Shown here: positions 5,348 through 45,604 of the stretch, piece by piece | Position numbering within the stretch: the first letter of the stretch is position 1 | Layout: each line of letters starts with the position of its first letter | Assembly: GCA_903855705.1 (NCBI GenBank) | Contig: CAINZT010000073.1 | Coordinates: forward strand, 1-45,700 | DNA length: 45,700 nucleotides | Source of the DNA: an uncultured Synechococcus sp. | GTDB lineage: Bacteria > Cyanobacteriota > Cyanobacteriia > PCC-6307 > Cyanobiaceae | Direction: 5' to 3' | Notes under the pieces: model-generated | What the model saw: only the letters and a program-made list of their open reading frames with translations | The model's database searches: none | Told to the model about the DNA's origin: nothing | Made by a program: the position numbers and the translations under genes

Positions 5348-6711
5348 CCCGAGCCGCCGCAAGTGCCAACAGCCGCCAGGACGGGGGCCAATCCGATCCC
5401 CCAGCCGGCAACGCTGCAACCACAAACCCAGCCAAGGCGAACCAAGCCAGTCCAAACCCAGCCCAGCTTGGACGCCTCCTGCCCCACTCCCCCAAACCTC
5501 AGCAGCCCTTGGCAGCCTTGGAGTCCATGATCGAGGCGCTGCGGCGACTACCGGGCCAGGCCCAGCGCCAGTGGACCCGGCTGCCGCTGATGGATCGCTG
5601 GCTCGCCGGCGAGTTACTCGGTCCCCTGCTGTTTGGCGTGGCCGCCTTCACCACCGTCTCCCTGTCGGTGGGGGTGGTGTTCGAGCTGGTACGCCGGGTC
5701 TCGGAATCGGGCCTGCCCGTTACGGCGGCCTTTCAGGTGCTGATCCTGCGGCTGCCGAGCTTCCTGGTGCTGTCCTTCCCGATGGCCACCTTGATGGCCA
5801 CCCTGCTGGCCTACAGCCGGCTCTCGAGCACCAGCGAACTCACGGCCCTGCGCAGCATCGGCGTGGCCACCTGGCGGATGGTGGTGCCGGCCCTAGTGGT
5901 GGCGGGCCTGATGAGTGGTCTCACCTTTGTGTTCAACGATGTGATCGTGCCCCGGGCCAACCTGGCCGCCTCGATCACCTTCGATCGGGCCCTGGGGCGG
6001 GCCCTGTCCTCGGAACGGGGCAAGGATGTGGTGTATTCCCGCTTTGGTTCGATCCAATCCAACGATCCAGGGGCACCAACCAAAGAGGGCCTAGCCCAAC
6101 TCTTTTACGCCCAGGAATTTCGCGACGGGGTGATGCTGGATGTCACGGTGCTGGATTTTTCCCACCAGGGCCAGCAGCAAATCATGACAGCCCAGAAAGG
6201 AATCTGGAATGAGAAACGCAGCCTCTGGGAATTTCTCAATGGACGCATTGTCAATATCAACCCCGGCGATAACACCACCACCTCAGCCCAGTTTGATCGC
6301 TACTTCTATCCCTTCACTTCCGCGCCGATCCAGGTGGCCAAGTTGCCCACCAACGCCGAAGAAATGACGGCGGCCCAGGCGATCAGGGCCGAGCAGTTGC
6401 TGGAGGAGGCCGGCGATGGCAAGGAGGCCCGGCGCCTGCGGGTGCGCATTCAGGAGAAATTCGCCTTCCCCTTCATCAGCCTGGTGTTTGGCCTGATTGG
6501 CAGCAGCCTGGGGGTCAGACCCAATTCGCGCACCAGCCGCAGCCAGGGGTTTGGCATCAGTGTGCTGCTCATTTTTGGCTACTACCTGATGTCGTTCATC
6601 TTCAGTTCCCTGGGGGTCAAGGGCACCCTTTATCCGATCCTGGCGGCCTGGATGCCGGTGTGGATCGGCCTGGGCGGCGGCCTACTGCTGTTACGCCAGG
6701 CCAGCCGTTAA
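5344..6711 (+). CDS. LptF/LptG-family (YjgP/YjgQ) permease
   Basis: The protein is 455 residues with the YjgP/YjgQ fold: N-terminal helices after 'MDRWLAGELLGPLLFGVAAFTTVSL', a central periplasmic beta-jellyroll, and C-terminal helices ('FPFISLVFGLIGSSLGV', 'FGISVLLIFGYYLMSFIFSS'). It is the membrane partner of LptB. Cyanobacteria usually carry a single LptF/G homolog, and only one is visible here. The first about 60 residues are Ala/Pro/Asn-rich and not conserved; ATG 5527 would give a more typical 394-residue protein, but the 5344 start overlaps the lptB stop by 4 bp, which favours it. Confidence 0.9.
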   Translation: MTRAAASANSRQDGGQSDPPAGNAATTNPAKANQASPNPAQLGRLLPHSPKPQQPLAALESMIEALRRLPGQAQRQWTRLPLMDRWLAGELLGPLLFGVAAFTTVSLSVGVVFELVRRVSESGLPVTAAFQVLILRLPSFLVLSFPMATLMATLLAYSRLSSTSELTALRSIGVATWRMVVPALVVAGLMSGLTFVFNDVIVPRANLAASITFDRALGRALSSERGKDVVYSRFGSIQSNDPGAPTKEGLAQLFYAQEFRDGVMLDVTVLDFSHQGQQQIMTAQKGIWNEKRSLWEFLNGRIVNINPGDNTTTSAQFDRYFYPFTSAPIQVAKLPTNAEEMTAAQAIRAEQLLEEAGDGKEARRLRVRIQEKFAFPFISLVFGLIGSSLGVRPNSRTSRSQGFGISVLLIFGYYLMSFIFSSLGVKGTLYPILAAWMPVWIGLGGGLLLLRQASR

Positions 6712-7865: not shown

Positions 7866-7901
7866 AAAGCCCCGGCAGCCCTTCTGGGTCGCCGGGGCTT
7901 T
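7866..7901. terminator. Bidirectional terminator between ccsA and rpe
   Basis: There is a perfect 11-bp inverted repeat, AAAGCCCCGGC (7866-7876) and GCCGGGGCTTT (7891-7901). A-rich and T-rich flanks make it usable in both directions between the convergent ccsA and rpe genes. Confidence 0.85.
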
Positions 7902-7966
7902 CGGTTAGGGGCTCTGGGCTGGGCCCAAGCTGGATTCGTCCCAATCCGGTGCCCAGCCGAGGAGGC

Positions 7967-8650
7967 TCAAGCGGCCACGGCCACGGGGCGGCGGCTGTTG
8001 CGGATGCCGGTAATGGCCTCGGCGTAGCTGGGCTGGTTAAACACTCCCGAACCCGACACGATCGCATTGGCGCCGGCCTCGATCACCTGCCAGGCATTGC
8101 TGCCCTTGATGCCGCCGTCGACTTCGATCCAGGGATCGAGGCCGCGCTCATCGCACATGCGGCGCAGGGCCGCGATCTTCTGCACCTGGGAGGGGATGAA
8201 GCTCTGGCCGCCAAAGCCGGGGTTGACGCTCATGATCAGCACCAGATCACAGAGCTCGAGGCAGTACTCCAGGGTGTCGAGGGGTGTGCCGGGGTTGAGC
8301 ACGGCGCCGGCCAGCTTGCCCAGGTCTTTGATTTGGGCCAGGTTGCGATGCAGGTGCGTGCAGGCCTCCACCTGGACGCTGATGATGTCGGCGCCGGCCT
8401 TGGCGAAGTCGGCCACATAGCGCTCCGGCTCGACGATCATCAGGTGCACGTCCAGGGGCTTGGTCGTGACCGGGCGCAGGGCCTCGACGATCAGGGGACC
8501 GATCGTGATGTTGGGCACGAAGCGGCCATCCATCACATCCACATGGATCCAGTCAGCGCCGGCCTCGTCAACGGCACGCACGTCCTCGCCAAGGCGGGAG
8601 AAATCGGCCGAAAGGATCGACGGGGAGATCACCAGGGGCTTGGTGCTCAT
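7967..8650 (-). CDS. rpe: Ribulose-phosphate 3-epimerase
   Basis: This 227-residue TIM-barrel epimerase has '[20 protein letters not shown]', '[16 protein letters not shown]' and '[15 protein letters not shown]', with the metal-binding His/Asp residues in place, plus the terminal 'DGGIKGSNA' and '[11 protein letters not shown]' phosphate-binding motifs. It interconverts ribulose-5-phosphate and xylulose-5-phosphate in the Calvin cycle and the oxidative pentose phosphate pathway. It is divergent from glpX, another Calvin-cycle gene, across a 252-bp intergenic region. The ATG start at 8650 is unambiguous. Confidence 0.97.
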
Positions 8651-35412: not shown

Positions 35413-36453
35413 ATGGCCCAGCCCAATGACCACGGTCATTCTCACAACCCGGGTCATTCTCACAACCCGGGTCATGCTCAAAACCCGGGTCATTCTCAGA
35501 ACCATGGCCCGGGTCCCCACCAAAGCCCTGCAGGCAACAACAGCCCTGGCGCCTCGGCGAGCCATCCGGCGGTGGCGATCCAGCGCCAGCCCCATCCGCG
35601 TCAGCACCAGCACCGCAGCGGCTCGGCGACGGCCTTTCGCTGGAGCGTGATCCTCAACAGTGGCCTCTCGGCCCTGCAGCTGGTGATCGGCTTTGGCTTC
35701 GGCTCCCTCGCCCTGATCGGCGATGCGGTCCACAACCTGGGCGATGTGGCCGGATTGTTGCTCGGCTGGGGGGCGGAACGGCTCAGCAGCCGAGCCCCGG
35801 ATGAACGCTTCACCTACGGCTATGGCCGCAGCACCCAGTTGGCCTCCCTGGCCAATGCGGTGTTGATCCTGATGGCCTCGGCCGTCGTGCTGATGGAGGG
35901 GATCAAGCGCCTCGGCGCCGCAACCGAGGTGATCAGCACGCCGGTGGCCTGGGCCGCCGCCCTCGGCATCGCCGTCAACCTGTTTTCGGCCCGCCTGTTC
36001 GGCCACGACAGCAGCCACGACCTCAACCGCCGGGCGGCGGTGATCCACCTGCTGGGCGATGCGGCCGTGTCGGCGGCCGTGTTGCTGAGCGCCATCGTCG
36101 TGGGGCTGACCCACTGGTATTGGCTCGATGCCGCCACCGGCATCGCCGTGGGCCTGGCCGTGGCCTGGACCGGCTGGGGCCTGCTGCGCGATGCCATGCA
36201 AGTGGCCCTCGATGCCGTGCCGCCAGGCATTGAGATGGCCGCGGTGGACCAGGTCCTACGGGGCCTGCCCGGGGTACTCGATGTGCACCACCTGCACGTC
36301 TGGGGCATGAGCACCTCCCAGATCGCCCTCACCGCCCACATGGTGCGCCGGCCCCTGGACGTCGATGACATGGACCTGCTGCACCAGGCCAAGGAACGCC
36401 TGGCCGAACTGGGCATCGCCCACAGCACGATCCAGCTGGAGCCGCCCTCCTGA
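35413..36453 (+). CDS. CDF-family divalent cation exporter (paralog 1)
   Basis: The 346-residue protein has six helices and a cytoplasmic CDF domain. The zinc-type metal motifs are H107-x3-D111 in helix 2 ('GDAVHNLGD') and H212-x3-D216 in helix 5 ('HLLGD'), as in ZitB/CzcD zinc, cobalt or cadmium exporters. The N-terminal about 70 residues are His/Pro/Asn-rich and contain four 18-bp tandem repeats. The gene starts 5 bp after the second ATPase and is likely co-transcribed. A closely similar paralog lies at 40221. Confidence 0.9.
   Translation: MAQPNDHGHSHNPGHSHNPGHAQNPGHSQNHGPGPHQSPAGNNSPGASASHPAVAIQRQPHPRQHQHRSGSATAFRWSVILNSGLSALQLVIGFGFGSLALIGDAVHNLGDVAGLLLGWGAERLSSRAPDERFTYGYGRSTQLASLANAVLILMASAVVLMEGIKRLGAATEVISTPVAWAAALGIAVNLFSARLFGHDSSHDLNRRAAVIHLLGDAAVSAAVLLSAIVVGLTHWYWLDAATGIAVGLAVAWTGWGLLRDAMQVALDAVPPGIEMAAVDQVLRGLPGVLDVHHLHVWGMSTSQIALTAHMVRRPLDVDDMDLLHQAKERLAELGIAHSTIQLEPPS
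35434..35505 (+). repeat. Four 18-bp tandem repeats in the CDF gene
   Basis: The unit GGTCATTCTCACAACCCG is found twice perfectly (35434-35451 and 35452-35469) and then with substitutions (35470-35487 and 35488-35505). Each adds a G-H-S-H-N-P type segment with metal-binding histidines. Confidence 0.92.
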
Positions 36454-37191: not shown

Positions 37192-37878
37192 TTGAAGCTC
37201 CTGGTGGTTGAGGACGACAGCCAGCTGCGCAGCGCCCTAATCCAGCTGCTGGGGCGCTGGGGCTATGCCTGTGAGGGCAGTGGCGATGGCGCCTCGGCCC
37301 TGGCCCTGCTCGCAGCCCAGCCCTTTGATCTGGTGCTGCTGGATCTGGGCCTGCCGGGCCTCGATGGGTTAGAGCTCTGCCGCAGGTTGCGCCAGCAGCC
37401 CGGTCACCAGCCCCTGGTGTTGATGCTCACCGCCCGCGATGCCAGTGGCGACAAGGTGCGCGGCCTTGATGGCGGCGCCGACGACTATCTCGTCAAACCC
37501 TTCGAACCCGCCGTGCTGCAGGCCCAGCTGCGGGCCCTGCTGCGGCGCCGGGGCCGGCCCCTGGACGTCGATCTCAGCTGGGGGCCCCTGCGCCTGATCC
37601 CAGGCCAGAGCCTCCTCTGGATCGAAGGCCAGCCCCTGGGGATCACCCGCAAGGAAGCGCTGTTGCTGGAATTGCTGCTGCAGCGCCAGGGCCAATGCTG
37701 CAGCAAACAGGAGTTGCTCACGGGCAGCTCAGCCAGCTCCCGGGAGGTGGGCGAGGCCACGATCAAGGCCCACATCCGTAACCTGCGCAGCAAGTTGACC
37801 AGCGCCGGCTGCCGGGCCGATCTGATTGAAACCGTCTACGGCCTTGGCTATCGCCTCAACCCCAACGCCCTCGCCTGA
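37192..37878 (+). CDS. OmpR-family response regulator
   Basis: The 228-residue protein has a receiver domain with acidic residues in 'VVEDDS', phospho-acceptor Asp51 ('LVLLDLGLPGLDG') and Lys102 ('DYLVKPF'), then an OmpR/PhoB winged-helix domain ending 'LIETVYGLGYRLNP'. The start is TTG 37192. The partner kinase starts 5 bp after its stop. The position inside a metal-transport island, and TGAC repeats at 11-bp spacing upstream of mnx, suggest it regulates metal export. ManR/RpaB-like roles are possible but not shown. Confidence 0.92.
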   Translation: MKLLVVEDDSQLRSALIQLLGRWGYACEGSGDGASALALLAAQPFDLVLLDLGLPGLDGLELCRRLRQQPGHQPLVLMLTARDASGDKVRGLDGGADDYLVKPFEPAVLQAQLRALLRRRGRPLDVDLSWGPLRLIPGQSLLWIEGQPLGITRKEALLLELLLQRQGQCCSKQELLTGSSASSREVGEATIKAHIRNLRSKLTSAGCRADLIETVYGLGYRLNPNALA

Positions 37879-37882
37879 TCCC

Positions 37883-39478
37883 TTGCGGCTGAAGCGGCGC
37901 CTGGGGCTGCAGGGGTCCGGCTTTGCCCTACTGGTGCTCGGGGCCTTTGCCGCCGCGGTTTATGGGGGCATCGCTGCCCAACGCCAGGAGGACCTGCGCG
38001 GCGAGCTCAGTCAGCTGGCCGCCAGCGCCGCCTCCCAGCTGCCCCTAATCGCCCACGAGGCCCATGAGGTGGGCAATGCCCGCAAGTTCAACAACGATCG
38101 GACCGTGGTGGCCCTGCCGGAACGCAACCCCCAGCGGCTCCAGTGGTTTGACGCCGAAGGCCGCCTGTTGAACGACCAGGGCCAGCTGGCCGTGCCGCCC
38201 CTGCCTGACCTTGGGAGAGGGAGCGTGCCTGGGCCGAGCTCAGGACTTGGATCTGAATCTGAATCTGAATCTGAATCTGAATCTGGATCTGGATCTGGAT
38301 CGGGATCGGGATCGGGGACAAGGCCCAAGGGAACAGGACATCGCGAGGCGCCAGGGCGACTCGCTGGCCCGGGCCGCCCGCGCCCAGCCCTGTGGCAGCG
38401 CTGGCCTGGGGGGATCAGCCTGTGGCAGCCGGTGTACACCCAGTCCCGCCAAGGATCGAGTTCGGGCCAGGGATTGCACCAGGCCCCTGGGGCAGGGCCC
38501 AGCCGGGGCGGAGTGCCCCAGTTCAGCGGCTCGGTGCGGGTGGCCCTCTCGAACCAGGCCGCCCTGGCGGACCTGCGCCGGCTGCAACGGGGCCTGCTAC
38601 TGGGGGCGATCGTGGCGACCCTCTCGGCCCTGGTGGTGGGGCGGCGCATGGTTCAAGCCGCCTTCGCCCCCCTGCAGCAGCAGGTGGAAGCCCTGCAACG
38701 GTTCAGCGGCGAGGCCTCCCATGAATTGCGCCACCCCCTCACCAACCTGCGCACCCTGCTGGCCGCCGCCCCAGACTCGCTCGATCCGGCCAGCCGCCGG
38801 TTACTGGCCCAGGTCGATCGCCTGGCGGCCCAGATGGGGACCCTGCTCAACGACCTGCTGTTTCTCGCCCGCCAGGAGCAGGGGCTCGAACCCGGCCTGG
38901 CCTCCCACCAACGCCGGCGCCGCTTTGACCTACTCGAACTGCTCGACGACCTGCTGGAGAACCACCAGCTCCAGGCGGCCCAGCGCGGCATCCACCTAGG
39001 TCTGGAGGCGCCCGCCGGACTCGAGGCCTTGCCGGTAACGGCCGAGGCCGAGCCCCTGCAACGGCTGTTCACCAACCTGCTGCTCAATGCCCTGCGCCAC
39101 AGCCCCCGCCACGGCCGGGTCACGCTGCGGGTGAAGACATTCGGGGCGAAGCTGCTGGTGGAGGTGGTGGACGCCGGCCCCGGCATTGCCGAGGCCGATC
39201 GGGAGCGGATCTTCGAGCGGTTCTGGCGCGGCCCGCCCCCGCCGGACCAGGGCCCTGGCGACACCGGCGAATCCAGCCCTGGGGAGCCCGGCAGCCCCGA
39301 ACCTGGGGCGATCGAACCCAGCGGCCTGGGTCTGGCGATCGCCCGAGCCCTCGCCCGCCAGCAGGGCGGCGAGCTCACCCTGGCGGCCGCCGATCCCGGC
39401 CATTGCGTCTTTGCCGTTGAGCTGACCTGGGGCTGGGGGGGGCCCAGGGAAAGCAGCTCGGGGCACGATCTGGCCTGA
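37883..39478 (+). CDS. Sensor histidine kinase with hexanucleotide-repeat sensor loop
   Basis: The 531-residue protein has TM1 (about residues 10-32), an extracytoplasmic region of about 190 residues, TM2 ('GLLLGAIVATLSALVV'), the H-box with His280 ('EASHELRHPLTNLRTL'), the N-box 'LFTNLLLNALRHSPRHG', G1 'VVDAGPGIAEADRERIF' and G2 'GLGLAIARALARQQGG'. The sensor loop carries a run of about 22 residues alternating Ser with Glu and then Gly, encoded by eleven 6-bp units. The start is TTG 37883; a TTG at 37826 would overlap the response regulator by 53 bp. A Gly/Pro/Ser insertion also lies between G1 and G2. Confidence 0.9.
   Translation: MRLKRRLGLQGSGFALLVLGAFAAAVYGGIAAQRQEDLRGELSQLAASAASQLPLIAHEAHEVGNARKFNNDRTVVALPERNPQRLQWFDAEGRLLNDQGQLAVPPLPDLGRGSVPGPSSGLGSESESESESESGSGSGSGSGSGTRPKGTGHREAPGRLAGPGRPRPALWQRWPGGISLWQPVYTQSRQGSSSGQGLHQAPGAGPSRGGVPQFSGSVRVALSNQAALADLRRLQRGLLLGAIVATLSALVVGRRMVQAAFAPLQQQVEALQRFSGEASHELRHPLTNLRTLLAAAPDSLDPASRRLLAQVDRLAAQMGTLLNDLLFLARQEQGLEPGLASHQRRRRFDLLELLDDLLENHQLQAAQRGIHLGLEAPAGLEALPVTAEAEPLQRLFTNLLLNALRHSPRHGRVTLRVKTFGAKLLVEVVDAGPGIAEADRERIFERFWRGPPPPDQGPGDTGESSPGEPGSPEPGAIEPSGLGLAIARALARQQGGELTLAAADPGHCVFAVELTWGWGGPRESSSGHDLA
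38251..38316 (+). repeat. Hexanucleotide microsatellite in the histidine kinase gene
   Basis: There are eleven in-frame 6-bp units: ATCTGA five times, ATCTGG three times, then ATCGGG three times. They encode alternating Glu-Ser and then Gly-Ser. Length changes by whole units would keep the frame. Confidence 0.93.
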
Positions 39479-39564
39479 AACTGGCCTGAAAACGCCCTGG
39501 ATCTGGGCGGAATCTGACGCAACCTTGACGACTTTTTGACCGCTTTCAGGCCAGGGTTAGAGCC
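39470..39564 (+). promoter_or_regulatory. mnx upstream region with 11-bp-phased TGAC boxes
   Basis: TGAC occurs at 39515, 39526 and 39537, i.e. three boxes at exact 11-bp intervals (CTGACGCAACC, TTGACGACTTT, TTGACCGCTTT), the typical arrangement for OmpR/PhoB-family direct-repeat binding. Just upstream is a perfect 11-bp tandem duplication CTGGCCTGAAA (39470-39480 and 39481-39491) overlapping the kinase stop codon, and its inverse TCAGGCCAG recurs at 39546-39554. No good -10 box was found. Confidence 0.6.
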
Positions 39565-40221
39565 ATGACGTTTCCCGTAATCGCGAGTGATCCAGGCCTG
39601 GCGGCCTTTGGATCGAGTCTCACGGCCATCTCCCTGGCGGAACTGGGGGACAAAACCTTCTTCATGGCCCTGATCCTGGCGGCCCGCCATCGGCCCCGCT
39701 GGGTGTTCATCGGCGCCTTCGCCGCGCTGGCTGTCGTCACCGTGATCTCCCTGGGCCTGGGCTACGGCCTACGGGAGCTGTTACCGCCGGGCCTGGTGCC
39801 CTGGCTGGCCGCCGCCCTGTTCCTGGGCTTCGGCCTCAAGCTGCTGATCGACGCCCAGGCGATGGGGGCCAATGCGGCCCAGGAAGAAGCCGAAGACGCC
39901 GAAGCGGCCGTGAATGCGGCGGAGGTGGGCCCGCCGATTGCCACCGCCTGGGCCGTGATCTGGGAAGCCTTTGCGCTTGTGTTCATCGCCGAACTCGGCG
40001 ATCGCACCCAGTTCGCCACGATTTTTCTGGCCACCGCTCCCTCCTTCAGCTTTGCCGGACTGCTGGCCGGCAGCCTGGTGGGCCACGGCCTGGTCACCTG
40101 GCTTGCGGTGGGGGCCGGCCAATGGATCGGCGGCCGCATCAGTGAACGGATGCTCTATCGCCTCAGCGCCGGCCTGTTCCTGCTGTTTGGCCTGGCCTCC
40201 CTGCGGCAGGCCCTGGGCTGA
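39565..40221 (+). CDS. mnx: UPF0016/GDT1-family manganese exporter
   Basis: The 218-residue protein has two inverted repeats of three helices, each with the family motif: ELGDKT (residues 26-31) and ELGDRT (143-148), joined by an acidic Ala/Glu loop (residues 100-120). In Synechocystis the homolog Mnx moves manganese into the thylakoid lumen or out of the cytoplasm and prevents Mn toxicity; calcium is also proposed for the family. It overlaps the second CDF gene by 1 bp (TGATG) and follows the two-component system, so all may respond to metal excess. Confidence 0.93.
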   Translation: MTFPVIASDPGLAAFGSSLTAISLAELGDKTFFMALILAARHRPRWVFIGAFAALAVVTVISLGLGYGLRELLPPGLVPWLAAALFLGFGLKLLIDAQAMGANAAQEEAEDAEAAVNAAEVGPPIATAWAVIWEAFALVFIAELGDRTQFATIFLATAPSFSFAGLLAGSLVGHGLVTWLAVGAGQWIGGRISERMLYRLSAGLFLLFGLASLRQALG

Positions 40222-41240
40222 TGGCATCGCAGCCTGAGCCCGGCAGGCCCAGCCCTGGTACCCCCTGCACCGGTACCCATGGCGATCACCCCCATGGCAA
40301 TACCAACCATCACGACCACGATCAAGCCCACGATCACGACCACAGCCATAGCCATGGCCATGCCCATGGCTTAAGCCCAGGGGGAGCCTTCCGCTGGAGC
40401 ATCCTGCTCAACAGCCTGCTCACCGGCCTGCAGCTGGTGATTGGCCTGGGCTTCGGCTCCCTGGCCCTAGTCGGAGATGCCCTGCACAACCTGGGCGATG
40501 TGGTGGGCCTGGCCCTGGGCTGGGGGGCGGATCGGCTGAGCCAACGCCCCCCCCGGGGCCGCTTCACCTATGGCTTCGGCCGCAGCACCCACCTGGCCTC
40601 CCTGATCAACGGCTCGCTCACCTTTCTGGCCGGAGCCGTGGTGGTGGTGGAAGCCCTGCTGCGGGTCCTCCATCCAGTGCCGATCCAGGTGGCCCCCGTG
40701 GCCCTGGCCGCCGCCGCCGGGATCGTGATCAACTTGGTCTCCGCTCGCCTGTTTGGCCACGACCATCACCACGACCTCAACCAGCGGGCGGCGGTGCTGC
40801 ACCTACTCACCGATGCGGCCGTCTCCGTGGCGGTGTTGCTCAGTGCCCTGCTGGTGGGGGCCACCGGCTGGCTCTGGCTCGATGCCCTCATGGCGATAGC
40901 GGTCGGAGCCATCGTCATGGCCAGCGCCTGGGGCCTGCTGCGCGAAGCCCTGGCCGTGAGCCTCGATGCGGTGCCGGCGGGGATTGATCTAGCTGCGATT
41001 GAGGCCAGCTTGCGCGCCTTGCCCGGGGCCGTGGATGTGCGGGCCCTGCACATCTGGGGCATCAGCAGTTCGAAAACGGCCTTAACCGCCCGTCTGATGC
41101 GACTGGAGCAAACCCCAGACGACAGCAATGCCGTGCTGCAGCAGGCCCAACAGCGCCTCGCAGCCCTTGGCATTGACAAGGTCACCCTGCAGTTGGAAAC
41201 GGTCAAGCCAGCGCAGAGCCATCCAGCACTAACCAGCTAA
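40221..41240 (+). CDS. CDF-family divalent cation exporter (paralog 2)
   Basis: The 339-residue protein is a clear paralog of the 35413 gene (shared 'FGSLALVGDALHNLGDVVGL' and the CDF C-terminal domain). Metal motifs: H89-x3-D93 in helix 2 and 'HLLTD' in helix 5. The N-terminus (residues 20-50) is rich in His-Asp and His-Ser-His pairs, but without the 18-bp repeats of paralog 1. It is translationally coupled to mnx by TGATG, so joint export of two metals under one control is likely. Confidence 0.9.
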   Translation: MASQPEPGRPSPGTPCTGTHGDHPHGNTNHHDHDQAHDHDHSHSHGHAHGLSPGGAFRWSILLNSLLTGLQLVIGLGFGSLALVGDALHNLGDVVGLALGWGADRLSQRPPRGRFTYGFGRSTHLASLINGSLTFLAGAVVVVEALLRVLHPVPIQVAPVALAAAAGIVINLVSARLFGHDHHHDLNQRAAVLHLLTDAAVSVAVLLSALLVGATGWLWLDALMAIAVGAIVMASAWGLLREALAVSLDAVPAGIDLAAIEASLRALPGAVDVRALHIWGISSSKTALTARLMRLEQTPDDSNAVLQQAQQRLAALGIDKVTLQLETVKPAQSHPALTS

Positions 41241-41505
41241 CTCCGCAGCACCAGCCGAAGCAGCACCGGCCAATCATTGCCCTGAACCCTGCCCACTTGG
41301 GCCCGCAACAACAAGGCCATTGGGGCACCAGAATTCTCCAAGCCCCTTCCAGCAATGGGGCCAAATCGTTAATAACGAACAGCTCGCCATCACAGCAGCC
41401 ATAAAGTTTTAAAGATCGGCCCACCGCCCGCACCGCAGATCTACAGCACAGACGATTCAAGCCCATAAGCAGCCAATCCATTGATCAAGATTGGTTCAAG
41501 CCTGG
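41241..41505 (+). other. Non-coding gap before otsA
   Basis: This 265-bp stretch separates the CDF gene from the trehalose operon. It becomes AT-richer towards the 3' side and contains short AT patches (TTAATAA, TAAAGTTTT), probably the operon promoter, but no -35/-10 pair with good spacing was found. The Cys-rich minus-strand reading here is not supported as a gene. Confidence 0.4.
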
Positions 41506-43143
41506 ATGCTTGATGGTGAAGATTTGACCGGCCTTCTGTTGCCCCAGCAAAACCTGGCTACGGCAAGTCCGAGCAGCCCCAGCTGGACGCGCGACAGGTT
41601 GCAAACACTGATCAAGACATCCTTTGGCGAGCGGCGGGTAGTGATTGTGGCCAACCGCAAACCGCTGCCAGCCGGCCCAGGTCCCAATGGGGCAGGAGCG
41701 AGCCAGAGCGTCAGCGGCTTACTCTCTGCCTTGATTCCACTGATCGAAGTCAGTGGTGGAACCTGGATTGGCCACGGCCACAGCGACGGTGACAGTGAAA
41801 GAGACAGTGACAGTGAAAGAGACAGCGGCAGTGACAGTGACAGTGACAGTGACAGCGAGAACGAGGGTGCTGCCGCCCAGCGCAACGGCCCGGCGATGGC
41901 ATCGGCAAGCCGCCCCTCCTATCGACTCCGTAACGTTGAAATTCAAGCGCAAGACTACAAGCGCTACTACAACGGATTTTCAAACCAAGGACTGTGGCCC
42001 CTTTGCCACATCACCTATACCCAACCGCAATTCAAACAAGCCGATTGGCAAGCCTATTGCCGCGTCAACCAACGCTTCGCCGAAGCCGTGCTTGAGGAAA
42101 CACAAGGCCAACAGGCCATCGTTTTCATCCAGGACTACCACCTAAGCCTCCTCTCTTCCCTGCTCAAAAAAAAGAACCCGAATCTACTGATTGCCCAGTT
42201 CTGGCACATTCCATGGCCGCATCATGATCAACTGCGCACCTGCCCCTTTCAGCAGGAAATAGTAAGCGGACTACTGGGAAATGACCTGCTAGGCTTTCAG
42301 ACTGCAAACAACTGCGCCAATTTCCTGGAAAGCGAAAGACATAATCAGGCCAGCCAAGAAAATCCATACCAACAAGGGCTTCCCTCTAATTTCAATACAA
42401 CAACCGTCAAGGCCTTCCCCATCAGCATTGACATGCGCGCCCATGAGGATCTAGCGAACAGTACGGCGGCGGTCCAGGCCATGGAGAAATGGAAGGATAA
42501 GTATCAGCTCAACAACAAAATCATTGGCATTGGCATTGAGCGACTTGACTACACGAAAGGACTCTTGCAAAAAATGCAAGCTATTGAGATTGTCCTGGGA
42601 AAACGGCCCGACCTCCGGGGCCGCCTTGTCTTTATTCAATTAGCAATCAGCTCCCGATGCGAGCAAACGCTCTATCGCAAACTAGGCCATCAGCTGAAGC
42701 AACTCGTCAACACAATCAATCAGCAGTATGGCGATCGAGAATGGATGCCAATTATCCTGCAACTGGATGCACACGACCAAGTCGACCTAGTCGCCATTGA
42801 GCGTTTGGCGAAATTCTGCGTCGTCAACTCCCTCCATGATGGCATGAATTTGGTTGCCAAGGAGTTCTGTGCCGCCCGCATCGACAACCAAGGCGTGTTG
42901 ATTTTGAGCGAGTTCACCGGTAGCGCCTTAGAACTTTCAGGCGCTTTGATGATTAATCCTTTTGCGATCGAAAGGATTGCTGATGCAATGCTTGAAGCAA
43001 TCGCCATGGAGCCCCAAGAGGAAGCCAGAAGGATGATCGCGATGCGAAACACGATCAGCCGACAAAATATATTTAGATGGGGGGCCGATATCGTCCAAGC
43101 GTTAAAAGATATCGAGGGCACAAAAGCGCGGCCATGCCAATAG
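41506..43143 (+). CDS. otsA: Trehalose-6-phosphate synthase (GT20) with a Ser/Asp repeat insertion
   Basis: This 545-residue GT20 enzyme has 'VVIVANRKPLPAG', 'YYNGFSNQGLWPLCH', 'FIQDYHLSLL', 'FWHIPWPHHDQLRTCPF', 'LLGFQTANN', 'ERLDYTKGL' and 'LHDGMNLVAKEF'. These are the OtsA donor and acceptor elements. It joins UDP- or ADP-glucose to glucose-6-phosphate. Between 'GGTWIGHG' and 'YRLRNVEIQA' there is an extra, acidic, repeat-encoded insertion of about 45 residues. ATG 41506 is preferred over TTG 41491. treS overlaps its end by 10 bp and otsB follows. Glucosylglycerol-phosphate synthase is a related alternative, but the adjacent otsB and treS favour trehalose. Confidence 0.85.
   Translation: MLDGEDLTGLLLPQQNLATASPSSPSWTRDRLQTLIKTSFGERRVVIVANRKPLPAGPGPNGAGASQSVSGLLSALIPLIEVSGGTWIGHGHSDGDSERDSDSERDSGSDSDSDSDSENEGAAAQRNGPAMASASRPSYRLRNVEIQAQDYKRYYNGFSNQGLWPLCHITYTQPQFKQADWQAYCRVNQRFAEAVLEETQGQQAIVFIQDYHLSLLSSLLKKKNPNLLIAQFWHIPWPHHDQLRTCPFQQEIVSGLLGNDLLGFQTANNCANFLESERHNQASQENPYQQGLPSNFNTTTVKAFPISIDMRAHEDLANSTAAVQAMEKWKDKYQLNNKIIGIGIERLDYTKGLLQKMQAIEIVLGKRPDLRGRLVFIQLAISSRCEQTLYRKLGHQLKQLVNTINQQYGDREWMPIILQLDAHDQVDLVAIERLAKFCVVNSLHDGMNLVAKEFCAARIDNQGVLILSEFTGSALELSGALMINPFAIERIADAMLEAIAMEPQEEARRMIAMRNTISRQNIFRWGADIVQALKDIEGTKARPCQ
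41791..41856 (+). repeat. Hexanucleotide microsatellite in otsA
   Basis: There are eleven in-frame 6-bp units, mostly GACAGT with GAAAGA, GACAGC and GGCAGT variants. They encode a run of Asp-Ser and Glu-Arg pairs inserted into the N-terminal domain of OtsA. Confidence 0.93.
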
Positions 43144-44792
43144 GGACACCAAGCAACTGGCATCTAGATGCAATTTTTTACCAAGTCTATGTCAGGGGAT
43201 TTCAGGATAGCGACAACGATGGTATTGGCGACCTCAATGGACTGATCAGCAGACTTGATTACCTACAGCAGCTTGGCGTGACCTGCCTTTGGTTAATGCC
43301 AATTCTGGAATCACCATTGCGAGATGATGGTTATGATGTGTCAAATTTCCTTGCTATTGACCCAACAATTGGCAGCGTAGCCGACTTTGAAAGGCTGACA
43401 AAAGCGGCCCACGCGCGCAAGCTGAAGGTGATTACCGACCTGGTTGTCAGCCATACCTCAGCCGAACATGCCTGGTTCCAAGACGCGAAACGAGGTCCTG
43501 AGTCAGCCTATTACAGCTACTACGTCTGGTCAAATGACGACAAGAAATACGCAGATGCCCGCATCATTTTCAATGACGTTGAAGACTCAAACTGGGCATG
43601 GTGTTCCAGCGCAAAGCAATTTTACTGGCATCGCTTCTTTGCCCATCAACCCGATCTTAATTACGCAACAAGCGAGGTGCAAGAAGCCATGCTTGCCAAT
43701 ATGCGATTCTGGCTAGAGCGGGGCATTGATGGTTTTCGGGTCGACGCCGTTCCCTATCTATTTGAACGGGAAGGAACAACTTGCGAAAATCTGCCCGAAA
43801 CCCATGCATTCTGCAAGCGGATGCGCCAGCTAATCAATGATCACTACCCAGATTGTATCCTCCTGGCGGAAGCAAACCAATGGCCAGAGGAATTAATCGA
43901 ATATTTTGGCAGGGGCGATGAATTCCACATGGCTTTTAACTTTCCACTGATGCCGAGAATTTATATGTCAGTCAAACAAGAAGATAGGGGGCCAATCGTA
44001 GATATCCTGGAGCGATTACCAGCCGTTCCTGCCGGCTGCCAGTGGGCCACATTCCTGCGTAATCATGATGAACTAACCCTGGAAATGGTATCCGACCCGG
44101 AGCGAGATTACATGGTTGAATCGTTTGCGAATGAACCGCGAATGCGCTTGAATCGCGGCATTCGTAGACGACTTGCCCCCCTGATGGACAACGATCGCCG
44201 CCAAATAGAATTACTCTACAGCATTTTATTGTCACTACCTGGCAGCCCTGTTATTTACTATGGCGATGAAATTGGCATGGGCGACAACATCTATCTAGGA
44301 GATCGCGATGGCGTCAGGACGCCAATGCAATGGTCGAGCGATCGCAATGCAGGCTTTTCGCAAGCCGATCGCTCGCGCCTCTATCAGCCAATCAATATCG
44401 ACGCTATTTATCACTATCAAGCCATCAATGTTGACTCGCAATTGCACGCACCAGCATCGCTACTTAACTGGCTGAAAATGATGTTGCACGCCAGGGTAAG
44501 CCACAGGGCCTTTAGTCGCGGTGATATTACATTTCTAGATGCAAGCAATCGCTGCATCCTAGCCCTGACAAGAGAATGGTGCGGCGAAATTGCCCTGGTC
44601 ATTCACAATCTATCGAAACTGCCTCAACCGACCCATCTTGATTTATCACGCTACCAAAGTCTGGTACCGCATCAGCTGCTTGGCATGCATCGCTTTCCGG
44701 CCATCACAAGGGATCCTTATTTCATCATCCTGAGCCCCTATGCCTCCCTCTGGTTCCTGTTGCAGCAGCCCAGCCCATCACCAGAAGCATGA
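43134..44792 (+). CDS. treS: Trehalose synthase (maltose alpha-glucosyltransferase), GH13
   Basis: The 552-residue protein starts 'NWHLDAIFYQVYVRGFQD'. The GH13 catalytic residues are present: nucleophile Asp in 'GFRVDAVPYLF', acid/base Glu in 'ILLAEANQWP', and the third Asp in 'FLRNHDELTLE'. 'GDRDGVRTPMQWSSDRNAGF' is characteristic of TreS. It interconverts maltose and trehalose. No maltokinase domain is attached and none is visible nearby. ATG 43134 overlaps the otsA end by 10 bp; otsB starts inside its stop codon. Codon use is AT-richer than the first 40 kb. Confidence 0.9.
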   Translation: MPIGTPSNWHLDAIFYQVYVRGFQDSDNDGIGDLNGLISRLDYLQQLGVTCLWLMPILESPLRDDGYDVSNFLAIDPTIGSVADFERLTKAAHARKLKVITDLVVSHTSAEHAWFQDAKRGPESAYYSYYVWSNDDKKYADARIIFNDVEDSNWAWCSSAKQFYWHRFFAHQPDLNYATSEVQEAMLANMRFWLERGIDGFRVDAVPYLFEREGTTCENLPETHAFCKRMRQLINDHYPDCILLAEANQWPEELIEYFGRGDEFHMAFNFPLMPRIYMSVKQEDRGPIVDILERLPAVPAGCQWATFLRNHDELTLEMVSDPERDYMVESFANEPRMRLNRGIRRRLAPLMDNDRRQIELLYSILLSLPGSPVIYYGDEIGMGDNIYLGDRDGVRTPMQWSSDRNAGFSQADRSRLYQPINIDAIYHYQAINVDSQLHAPASLLNWLKMMLHARVSHRAFSRGDITFLDASNRCILALTREWCGEIALVIHNLSKLPQPTHLDLSRYQSLVPHQLLGMHRFPAITRDPYFIILSPYASLWFLLQQPSPSPEA

Positions 44793-45604
44793 AAACAGCC
44801 TCCAGCCTGCCTGTGCTGACCTGCCAAGCATTTCTCAACCATTACCAAGCCGATAGCCCCCTGCATCTGTGCAGTGACTTCGACGGAACCCTGGTGCCAT
44901 TCCAGGCCGATCCAAAGGCTTGCCAGCTATCACCAAGACAGGCCGACACGTTGACAGCGCTGGCAGCCCTACCAGGAGTCCACATCACAATTGTCAGCGG
45001 CAGAACGCTCCTAGATCTGCAGAACCGCTTGGGCATTACCGGCCTGGGTTATGTGGGCAATCACGGCCTTGAAATAGCAACCGAATCCCTCAATTTTGTC
45101 CACCCTGGCGCCGTCGCCATGACAACAAAACTCGCACACTGGCAGGCCATCCTGCAAGATAAACTGCATCATTTCTCCGGAGTATGGATCGAAAATAAAA
45201 CATTATCTCTTTCCATTCATTACAGAAATCTGCCAGAGCATCGCCGCCAAGAATTCCTATCCGTGGTCGAAGAATGCTCGAGTGCAATCACGCAAGAGCG
45301 GCAGTTGCTGATCAGCGCTGCCAAGCTCGTTGTGGAGATACGACCGAACTTGGCCTGGACAAAAGGGTCGGCTATCCAGGCGATCAACGATTCCATCGAC
45401 GCAGACAGAAGCAAGGCGAGACGTGTCTACTTTGGCGATGACATCTCCGATGAGGATGCCTTTGCCCAATGGCCGGATGACTTGACCGTGCTGGTGGGAG
45501 AGGCCAATCGGCTGACCCATGCCAATTACCGGCTGAGCGACTACCTAGAGACCCATCGGCTCCTAGACGCATTACTTAAGCGGGTCCATCTATTTCGCCA
45601 TTGA
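44789..45604 (+). CDS. otsB: Trehalose-6-phosphate phosphatase
   Basis: The 271-residue HAD-family phosphatase has 'LCSDFDGTLVPFQ' (catalytic Asp pair), 'ITIVSGRTLLDLQ', 'YVGNHGLEI' and 'VYFGDDISDEDAFAQW'. It removes phosphate from trehalose-6-phosphate made by OtsA. ATGA overlap with treS at 44789 makes otsA-treS-otsB one translationally coupled operon. The C-terminus ends about 96 bp before the window edge; only a weak GCTTG-N8-CAAGC hairpin (45618-45635) follows. Confidence 0.92.
   Translation: MKTASSLPVLTCQAFLNHYQADSPLHLCSDFDGTLVPFQADPKACQLSPRQADTLTALAALPGVHITIVSGRTLLDLQNRLGITGLGYVGNHGLEIATESLNFVHPGAVAMTTKLAHWQAILQDKLHHFSGVWIENKTLSLSIHYRNLPEHRRQEFLSVVEECSSAITQERQLLISAAKLVVEIRPNLAWTKGSAIQAINDSIDADRSKARRVYFGDDISDEDAFAQWPDDLTVLVGEANRLTHANYRLSDYLETHRLLDALLKRVHLFRH

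What the first reader, a model, noticed from the sequence alone, without database searches (positions are those of the whole stretch)
39470..39564. Three TGAC boxes at 11-bp spacing before the manganese exporter, next to an orphan-looking two-component system
TGAC occurs at 39515, 39526 and 39537 in a row of 11-mers, and a perfect 11-bp tandem duplication with its inverse flanks them. OmpR/PhoB regulators bind direct repeats one helical turn apart. The response regulator and kinase sit immediately upstream, so the system may be a metal-sensing switch controlling mnx and the CDF exporter.
Basis: partly seen in the sequence, partly recalled or inferred. Interest (0 to 1): 0.62.

Follow-up and report, generated by a model that had tools for sequence, protein, structure and literature searches.

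The report
Conserved switch site for manganese exporter
The repeated DNA boxes before a manganese-export gene in a freshwater cyanobacterium are very probably the landing site of the regulator encoded next door, part of a sensor-regulator-exporter module shared by many small freshwater cyanobacteria and apparently not described before.

Summary
The boxes are real, and the main interpretation holds in improved form. TGAC boxes 2 and 3 (39526, 39537) match an operator found without using the window. A Gibbs search of 21 relatives with the kinase next to mnx gave CTCATGACTTCTTCATG, an 11-bp direct repeat. It lies about 22 bp before the mnx start in 25 of 25 kinase-linked loci and in 5 of 57 unlinked ones. 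Exactly 10 bp after it stands a -10-like YANNNT element ("YA" in 18 of 19 non-redundant loci), and 6-7 bp later the ATG. This is the PhoB/PmrA class II promoter layout, and it implies a leaderless mnx mRNA. The regulator's recognition helix co-varies with the half-sites. Two genomes keep the box although the regulator genes moved elsewhere. Close relatives that lost the regulator and kinase also lost or degraded the box.

The 11-bp tandem and its inverse are not conserved. The two-component system is not orphan-like. No second site with a -10 element was found in this genome.

Regulator binding, activation and Mn2+ as signal are inferred, not shown. Kind: a known type of circuit on a new target.

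The parts
37192..37878 (+). OmpR/PhoB-family response regulator (receiver + winged helix), TTG start
   Evidence: Pfam Response_reg 1.7e-27 and Trans_reg_C 2.4e-17; closest solved relatives PmrA/BasR 8jo2, 4s04
37883..39478 (+). Membrane sensor histidine kinase (start could also be TTG 37826 or 37844); sensor helix carries an invariant HExxE; window-specific hexanucleotide-repeat insert at about 38248-38316
   Evidence: HisKA, HATPase_c; sensor alignment; repeat
39515..39518 (+). First TGAC: extra half-site one turn upstream, shared only with sister genome L049 (degenerate TGAA in L050/L051)
39525..39541 (+). Operator TTGACGACTTTTTGACC: two half-sites 11 bp apart (contains TGAC 39526 and 39537); predicted binding site of the adjacent response regulator in place of a -35 element
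39552..39557 (+). Predicted -10 element CAGGGT (YANNNT), exactly 10 bp after the operator
   Evidence: YA at this offset in 18 of 19 non-redundant loci, 0-3 at other offsets except the CA of CATG itself
39565..39565 (+). Predicted transcription start = A of the mnx ATG (leaderless mRNA), inferred
   Evidence: 6-7 bp from the -10 element to ATG in most loci; no alternative in-frame downstream start before the ELGDKT motif in the window (sequence)
39565..40221 (+). mnx: GDT1/UPF0016 manganese exporter family, two E-x-G-D-(K/R)-T motifs
   Evidence: PF01169 9.2e-42; ORF
40221..41240 (+). CDF cation exporter overlapping the mnx stop (ATGA), so probably co-transcribed
   Evidence: TIGR01297 1.5e-61; homologues lie upstream of the regulator in other clades
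39470..39491 (+). 11-bp tandem CTGGCCTGAAA x2 overlapping the kinase stop; not conserved, not part of the operator
39544..39554 (+). Inverse copy TTTCAGGCCAG; it is the genus-conserved spacer/-10 sequence, and its pairing partner exists only in the window

Best explanation
The boxes are the operator of the adjacent two-component system. Signal-activated kinase would phosphorylate the PmrA/PhoB-like regulator. A head-to-tail dimer would bind the 11-bp direct repeat at 39525-39541 in place of a -35 element and recruit sigma-70 RNA polymerase to the -10 at 39552-39557. Transcription would start at the A of the mnx ATG, giving a leaderless mnx-CDF mRNA that exports excess manganese or another divalent metal. 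Shown here by sequence: the conserved operator, its spacing to the -10 and to the ATG, linkage and co-loss with the two-component system, helix/operator co-variation, and the absence of other convincing sites in this genome. Inferred: binding, activation rather than repression, the leaderless start, and Mn2+ as the signal.
For: Motif found without the window, log-likelihood score 464 against 185 for unlinked mnx upstreams. Box in 25/25 kinase-linked and 5/57 unlinked mnx loci (not corrected for phylogeny). Column similarity peaks at lag 11 (0.87; other lags 0.5 or less). -10-like YA exactly 10 bp after the box in 18 of 19 non-redundant loci. In an independent family-wide scan most mnx-adjacent hits lie 22 bp before the mnx start. 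Helix class [TS][IV][KR] goes with TSACG half-sites (7 loci) and [AS]LR with TCATG (13 loci; L060 mixed). In trans: genomes of L090 and L117 keep the box with the regulator unlinked. L052/L054 share a deletion from about RR codon 17 to inside half-site 2; L050/L051 lost the system and their box is degraded. A paralogous system has the same box + 10 bp + TANNNT before its regulator, a PMT glycosyltransferase and an RTX protein. No second site in this genome has a -10 among those checked. Invariant HExxE in the kinase sensor.
Against: No binding, expression or TSS data. The -10-like hexamers at mnx are weak (mostly CANNNT). Four genomes keep a box without a detectable regulator (L075, L100, L116, L122; two of these boxes score low, and some MAGs are incomplete). 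Enrichment and co-variation counts are inflated by shared ancestry. In Synechocystis mnx transcript does not respond to Mn excess (PMC11649195), though whether that species has this arrangement was not tested. The signal could be another metal or not a metal.
Confidence: 0.78

Rival explanations
1. The regulator binds this operator but represses mnx (as ManR represses mntCAB), or responds to a non-metal signal such as envelope stress or pH.
For: ManR in Synechocystis is a repressor that binds when Mn is present (PMC7020235, PMC11649195). The paralogous system controls a PMT glycosyltransferase and an RTX Ca-binding protein, which fits envelope or Ca sensing.
Against: Operator placement 10 bp upstream of a -10, with no separate -35, is the layout of OmpR/PhoB class II activators, and the same layout recurs in the paralogous regulon. 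The target genes are metal exporters.
Confidence: 0.25
2. The site belongs to another regulator (for example RpaB or RpaA) or is conserved only by hitchhiking with the locus.
For: RpaB/RpaA-type OmpR regulators also use direct repeats (background knowledge); all loci are related.
Against: Box tracks presence of this system, survives when the regulator is unlinked, co-varies with its helix, and stands out of poorly conserved flanks (mean 1.32 against 0.20 bits).
Confidence: 0.06
3. The region works as RNA: a hairpin or riboswitch (such as yybP-ykoY) in the mnx leader.
For: Window RNA folds well (z -4.45) owing to the tandem and inverse; GDT1 exporters elsewhere can be under yybP-ykoY control (literature lead).
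Against: No Rfam riboswitch hit even at E 5. The fold is absent from relatives (z -1.4, -1.1, -2.1, +1.2, -0.2). No terminator there.
Confidence: 0.04
4. Chance: short TGAC words in a GC-rich intergenic region.
For: The bare triplet occurs 3 times in the genome.
Against: Independent motif discovery and conservation across over 20 genomes.
Confidence: 0.02

Closest known systems
PmrA/BasR-PmrB (OmpR/PhoB family, class II activation; PDB 8jo2, 4s04/4s05)
   Same: Closest solved relatives of the regulator (E 2.5e-42); direct repeat of the same period replacing -35; kinase with an acidic metal-like motif in its sensor helix (PmrB ExxE recalled, HExxE here); the paralogous system even targets a PMT-family sugar transferase (ArnT-like, by recall)
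   Different: Far below the PmrA equivalog cut-off (167 against 330 bits); different half-site sequence; target is a manganese exporter; predicted leaderless start
ManS-ManR of Synechocystis PCC 6803
   Same: Two-component system with an OmpR-type regulator in cyanobacterial Mn homeostasis
   Different: ManSR represses the importer mntCAB; mnx there does not respond to Mn excess (PMC11649195); here the target is the exporter. Direct sequence comparison with ManR was not made
RppA-RppB / NrsR-NrsS (nickel-responsive system of Synechocystis)
   Same: Best kinase model and second-best regulator model in NCBIfam
   Different: Both well below their cut-offs (163 against 250; 121 against 400 bits); different target genes
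yybP-ykoY manganese riboswitch
   Same: Controls Mn exporters in other bacteria
   Different: Not found here; control here appears to be at the DNA level

Membership tests
OmpR/PhoB-family two-component regulator | Receiver domain plus C-terminal winged helix, paired with a HisKA/HATPase kinase | tested here: met
OmpR/PhoB-type class II promoter (PhoB, PmrA layout) | Direct-repeat operator with one-turn period ending about 10 bp before a -10 element, no -35 | tested here: met
   same layout in paralogous regulon
OmpR/PhoB-type class II promoter (PhoB, PmrA layout) | Phosphorylated regulator binds and activates transcription | not testable with these tools
   needs footprinting and mutants
PmrA equivalog | NCBIfam PRK10643 curated cut-off | tested here: not met
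   167 bits against 330
RppA/RppB equivalogs | NCBIfam NF041734 / NF041735 curated cut-offs | tested here: not met
   163 against 250; 121 against 400 bits
ManSR | Orthology to slr0640/slr1837 and repression of mntCAB | not tested
   no ManR sequence was compared; literature only
GDT1/UPF0016 Mn exporter (Mnx) | PF01169 with two E-x-G-D-(K/R)-T motifs | tested here: met
   ELGDKT and ELGDRT in the translation
yybP-ykoY riboswitch | Rfam covariance model match | tested here: not met
Leaderless mRNA | Transcription start at the start codon | tested here: inconclusive
   only predicted from -10 position; no TSS data

The most novel reading that the evidence does not exclude
A dedicated, apparently single-target two-component system in freshwater picocyanobacteria that senses excess periplasmic Mn2+ (HExxE sensor) and switches on a leaderless mnx mRNA. 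This would be a dedicated transcriptional control of a cyanobacterial manganese exporter, alongside but opposite in logic to ManSR.
Probability: 0.4. Interest if true: 0.6.

Novelty: new member of a known kind. Interest (0 to 1): 0.5.

Why it matters
Manganese is central to photosynthesis and toxic in excess. The literature held here says that only ManSR is known to regulate Mn homeostasis in cyanobacteria, and that mnx does not respond to Mn excess in the model species (PMC11649195, PMC7020235). A conserved regulator-operator-exporter module in many freshwater picocyanobacteria gives a concrete, testable candidate for Mn-excess control of export. Its natural losses, by deletion and decay, amount to ready-made knock-outs for comparison. 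The predicted leaderless start also makes a sharp TSS prediction.

Tried and rejected
Rfam scan for riboswitches: nothing above gathering, only weak unrelated hits. Consensus sigma-70 promoters and terminators: none at this site; the -10 emerged only from the alignment.

RNA hairpin formed by the tandem/inverse: strong in the window only, so set aside. Upstream peptide or N-terminal extension (ATGACTTCTTCATG reads M-T-S-S-stop or in frame in some loci): rejected because the frame and stops differ between loci and the window has no ATG there; the box also overlaps the kinase C-terminus in some genomes and not in others, so it is conserved as DNA.

Autoregulation: no box upstream of the mnx-linked regulator gene. 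Other targets in the own genome: the 11 best other near-matches checked lack the -10, and most lie in long open frames. Wider spread: box + -10 in 2 of 194 class genomes, both outside the family, consistent with chance.

Kinase model and Foldseek: only the kinase core matched usefully; the sensor fold stayed unassigned. The Fisher value (1.9e-16) is not corrected for shared ancestry.

Full report
OBSERVATION. The three TGAC words at 39515, 39526 and 39537, the 11-bp tandem at 39470-39491 and its inverse at 39544-39554 are all in the sequence. On its own the triplet is only mildly unusual: 3 exact occurrences in 2.63 Mb. The genes around it are a P-type ATPase, a CDF exporter, a small protein without a Pfam match, an OmpR-type regulator, a membrane histidine kinase, mnx (GDT1 family) and a second CDF exporter whose ATG overlaps the mnx stop.

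RELATIVES. Seventy-nine named loci with a close mnx homologue were fetched. About 22 have the kinase directly before mnx, mostly with the regulator before it and often a CDF gene before that; a further family search gave more. A Gibbs motif search on 21 such upstream regions, leaving out the window and its sister, returned AAYCTCATGACTTCTTCATG at a nearly fixed place before mnx. The same procedure on 21 unlinked mnx upstreams gave a much weaker best motif (185 against 464). The motif is an 11-bp direct repeat: columns resemble each other at lag 11 (0.87) far more than at any other lag. The window's boxes 2 and 3 align to it.

SPECIFICITY. With leave-one-out scoring all 25 kinase-linked mnx loci carry the box and 5 of 57 unlinked ones do. 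Of those five, L090 and L117 come from genomes that hold a regulator of this type elsewhere on the chromosome (identical coordinates identify these as L168 and L185), so the box is kept in trans; the regulator copy in L185 looks frame-broken. L122 retains the kinase's 3' end before the box (by eye), and L075, just below the threshold, has a kinase remnant. An exact-pattern scan of 300 family genomes found the box mainly 22 bp before mnx or at the paralogous system, plus scattered other hits, and the mnx-adjacent cases without a strong regulator hit have the kinase next to the box, cut by contig ends or partial. Outside the family the box with its -10 is essentially absent.

NATURAL LOSSES. Within the window's own genus only the window and L049 keep the system. 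L052 and L054 share a deletion from about codon 17 of the regulator to inside half-site 2. L050 and L051 lack the system through a different deletion and have a degraded box. Mnx itself is 89-95% identical across these genomes.

PROMOTER. Ten bp after the box comes YANNNT: A at the second position in 97% of 31 sequences, and YA at that offset in 18 of 19 non-redundant loci against 0-3 elsewhere, apart from the CA of CATG itself. Flanking columns average 0.20 bits, the box 1.32. The ATG follows 6-7 bp after the hexamer in most loci, so transcription would begin at the start codon. In the window no other in-frame start exists before the ELGDKT motif. A paralogous two-component system (regulator about 55%, kinase about 31% identical) carries the same box plus 10 bp plus TANNNT before its own regulator, a PMT-family glycosyltransferase and an RTX-repeat protein, there with ordinary leaders. 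This independently supports the layout.

REGULATOR MATCH. Regulators with [TS][IV][KR] in the recognition helix go with TSACG/TSACC half-sites (window, L049, L093, L105, L120, L158, L160; paralogues SVK). Those with [AS]LR go with TCATG (13 loci; L060 is mixed). The L168 regulator (TIK) and the operator in its genome (TTGACGACATCTTCACC, L090) obey the same rule although unlinked. This is suggestive, but confounded by ancestry.

SENSOR. The kinase sensor has an invariant HExxE at the outer end of its first long helix in both systems. A metal site is an inference, and the metal is not identified.

NOT PART OF IT. The tandem and inverse repeats form a strong RNA fold only in the window. The third TGAC is shared only with L049. 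No riboswitch was found.

KNOWN BACKGROUND. Papers read: ManSR is the only Mn regulator identified in cyanobacteria, and mnx is not transcriptionally affected by Mn excess in Synechocystis wild type (PMC11649195, PMC7020235). No description of this module was found in the searches made, but most subscription papers are not held. PhoB/PmrA promoter architecture and the PmrB ExxE motif are from background knowledge.

VERDICT. A well-supported, apparently undescribed regulon of a known kind. Binding, direction of control, signal and leaderless start remain to be tested.

Noticed in passing
L174, L175, L177, L178, L181, L183, L184: A paralogous two-component system in related picocyanobacteria has the same operator + 10 bp + TANNNT before its regulator, a PMT-family glycosyltransferase and an RTX Ca-binding-repeat protein: an apparent, seemingly undescribed multi-gene regulon.
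   Followed up: partly
window 38248-38316 and 41780-41855: In-frame hexanucleotide repeats encode Ser/Glu/Gly- and Ser/Asp-rich stretches in the kinase sensor and in a GT20 glycosyltransferase; the kinase insert is absent from the sister L049, so it may be a recent expansion.
   Followed up: partly
window 35413-36453 and 40221-41240: Two CDF exporters, 61% identical over 271 aa, flank the two-component system; a homologue of the second lies upstream of the regulator in other clades, so the module has been rearranged.
   Followed up: partly
L052 about 6228-6330, L054 about 7881-8025: The deletion in relatives fuses the first ~17 codons of the regulator gene, and presumably its promoter, to the mnx leader, which would put mnx under the former regulator promoter.
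   Followed up: partly
L063, L081, L104 (one MAG); L082 and L091 (one genome): Several genomes carry more than one mnx copy; L063, L081 and L104 all carry the box and system, while L082 and L091 look like one controlled and one uncontrolled copy.
   Followed up: no
window 41491-45604: GT20 glycosyltransferase, alpha-amylase family enzyme and trehalose-phosphatase-like gene in a row: possibly a compatible-solute cluster next to the metal genes.
   Followed up: no
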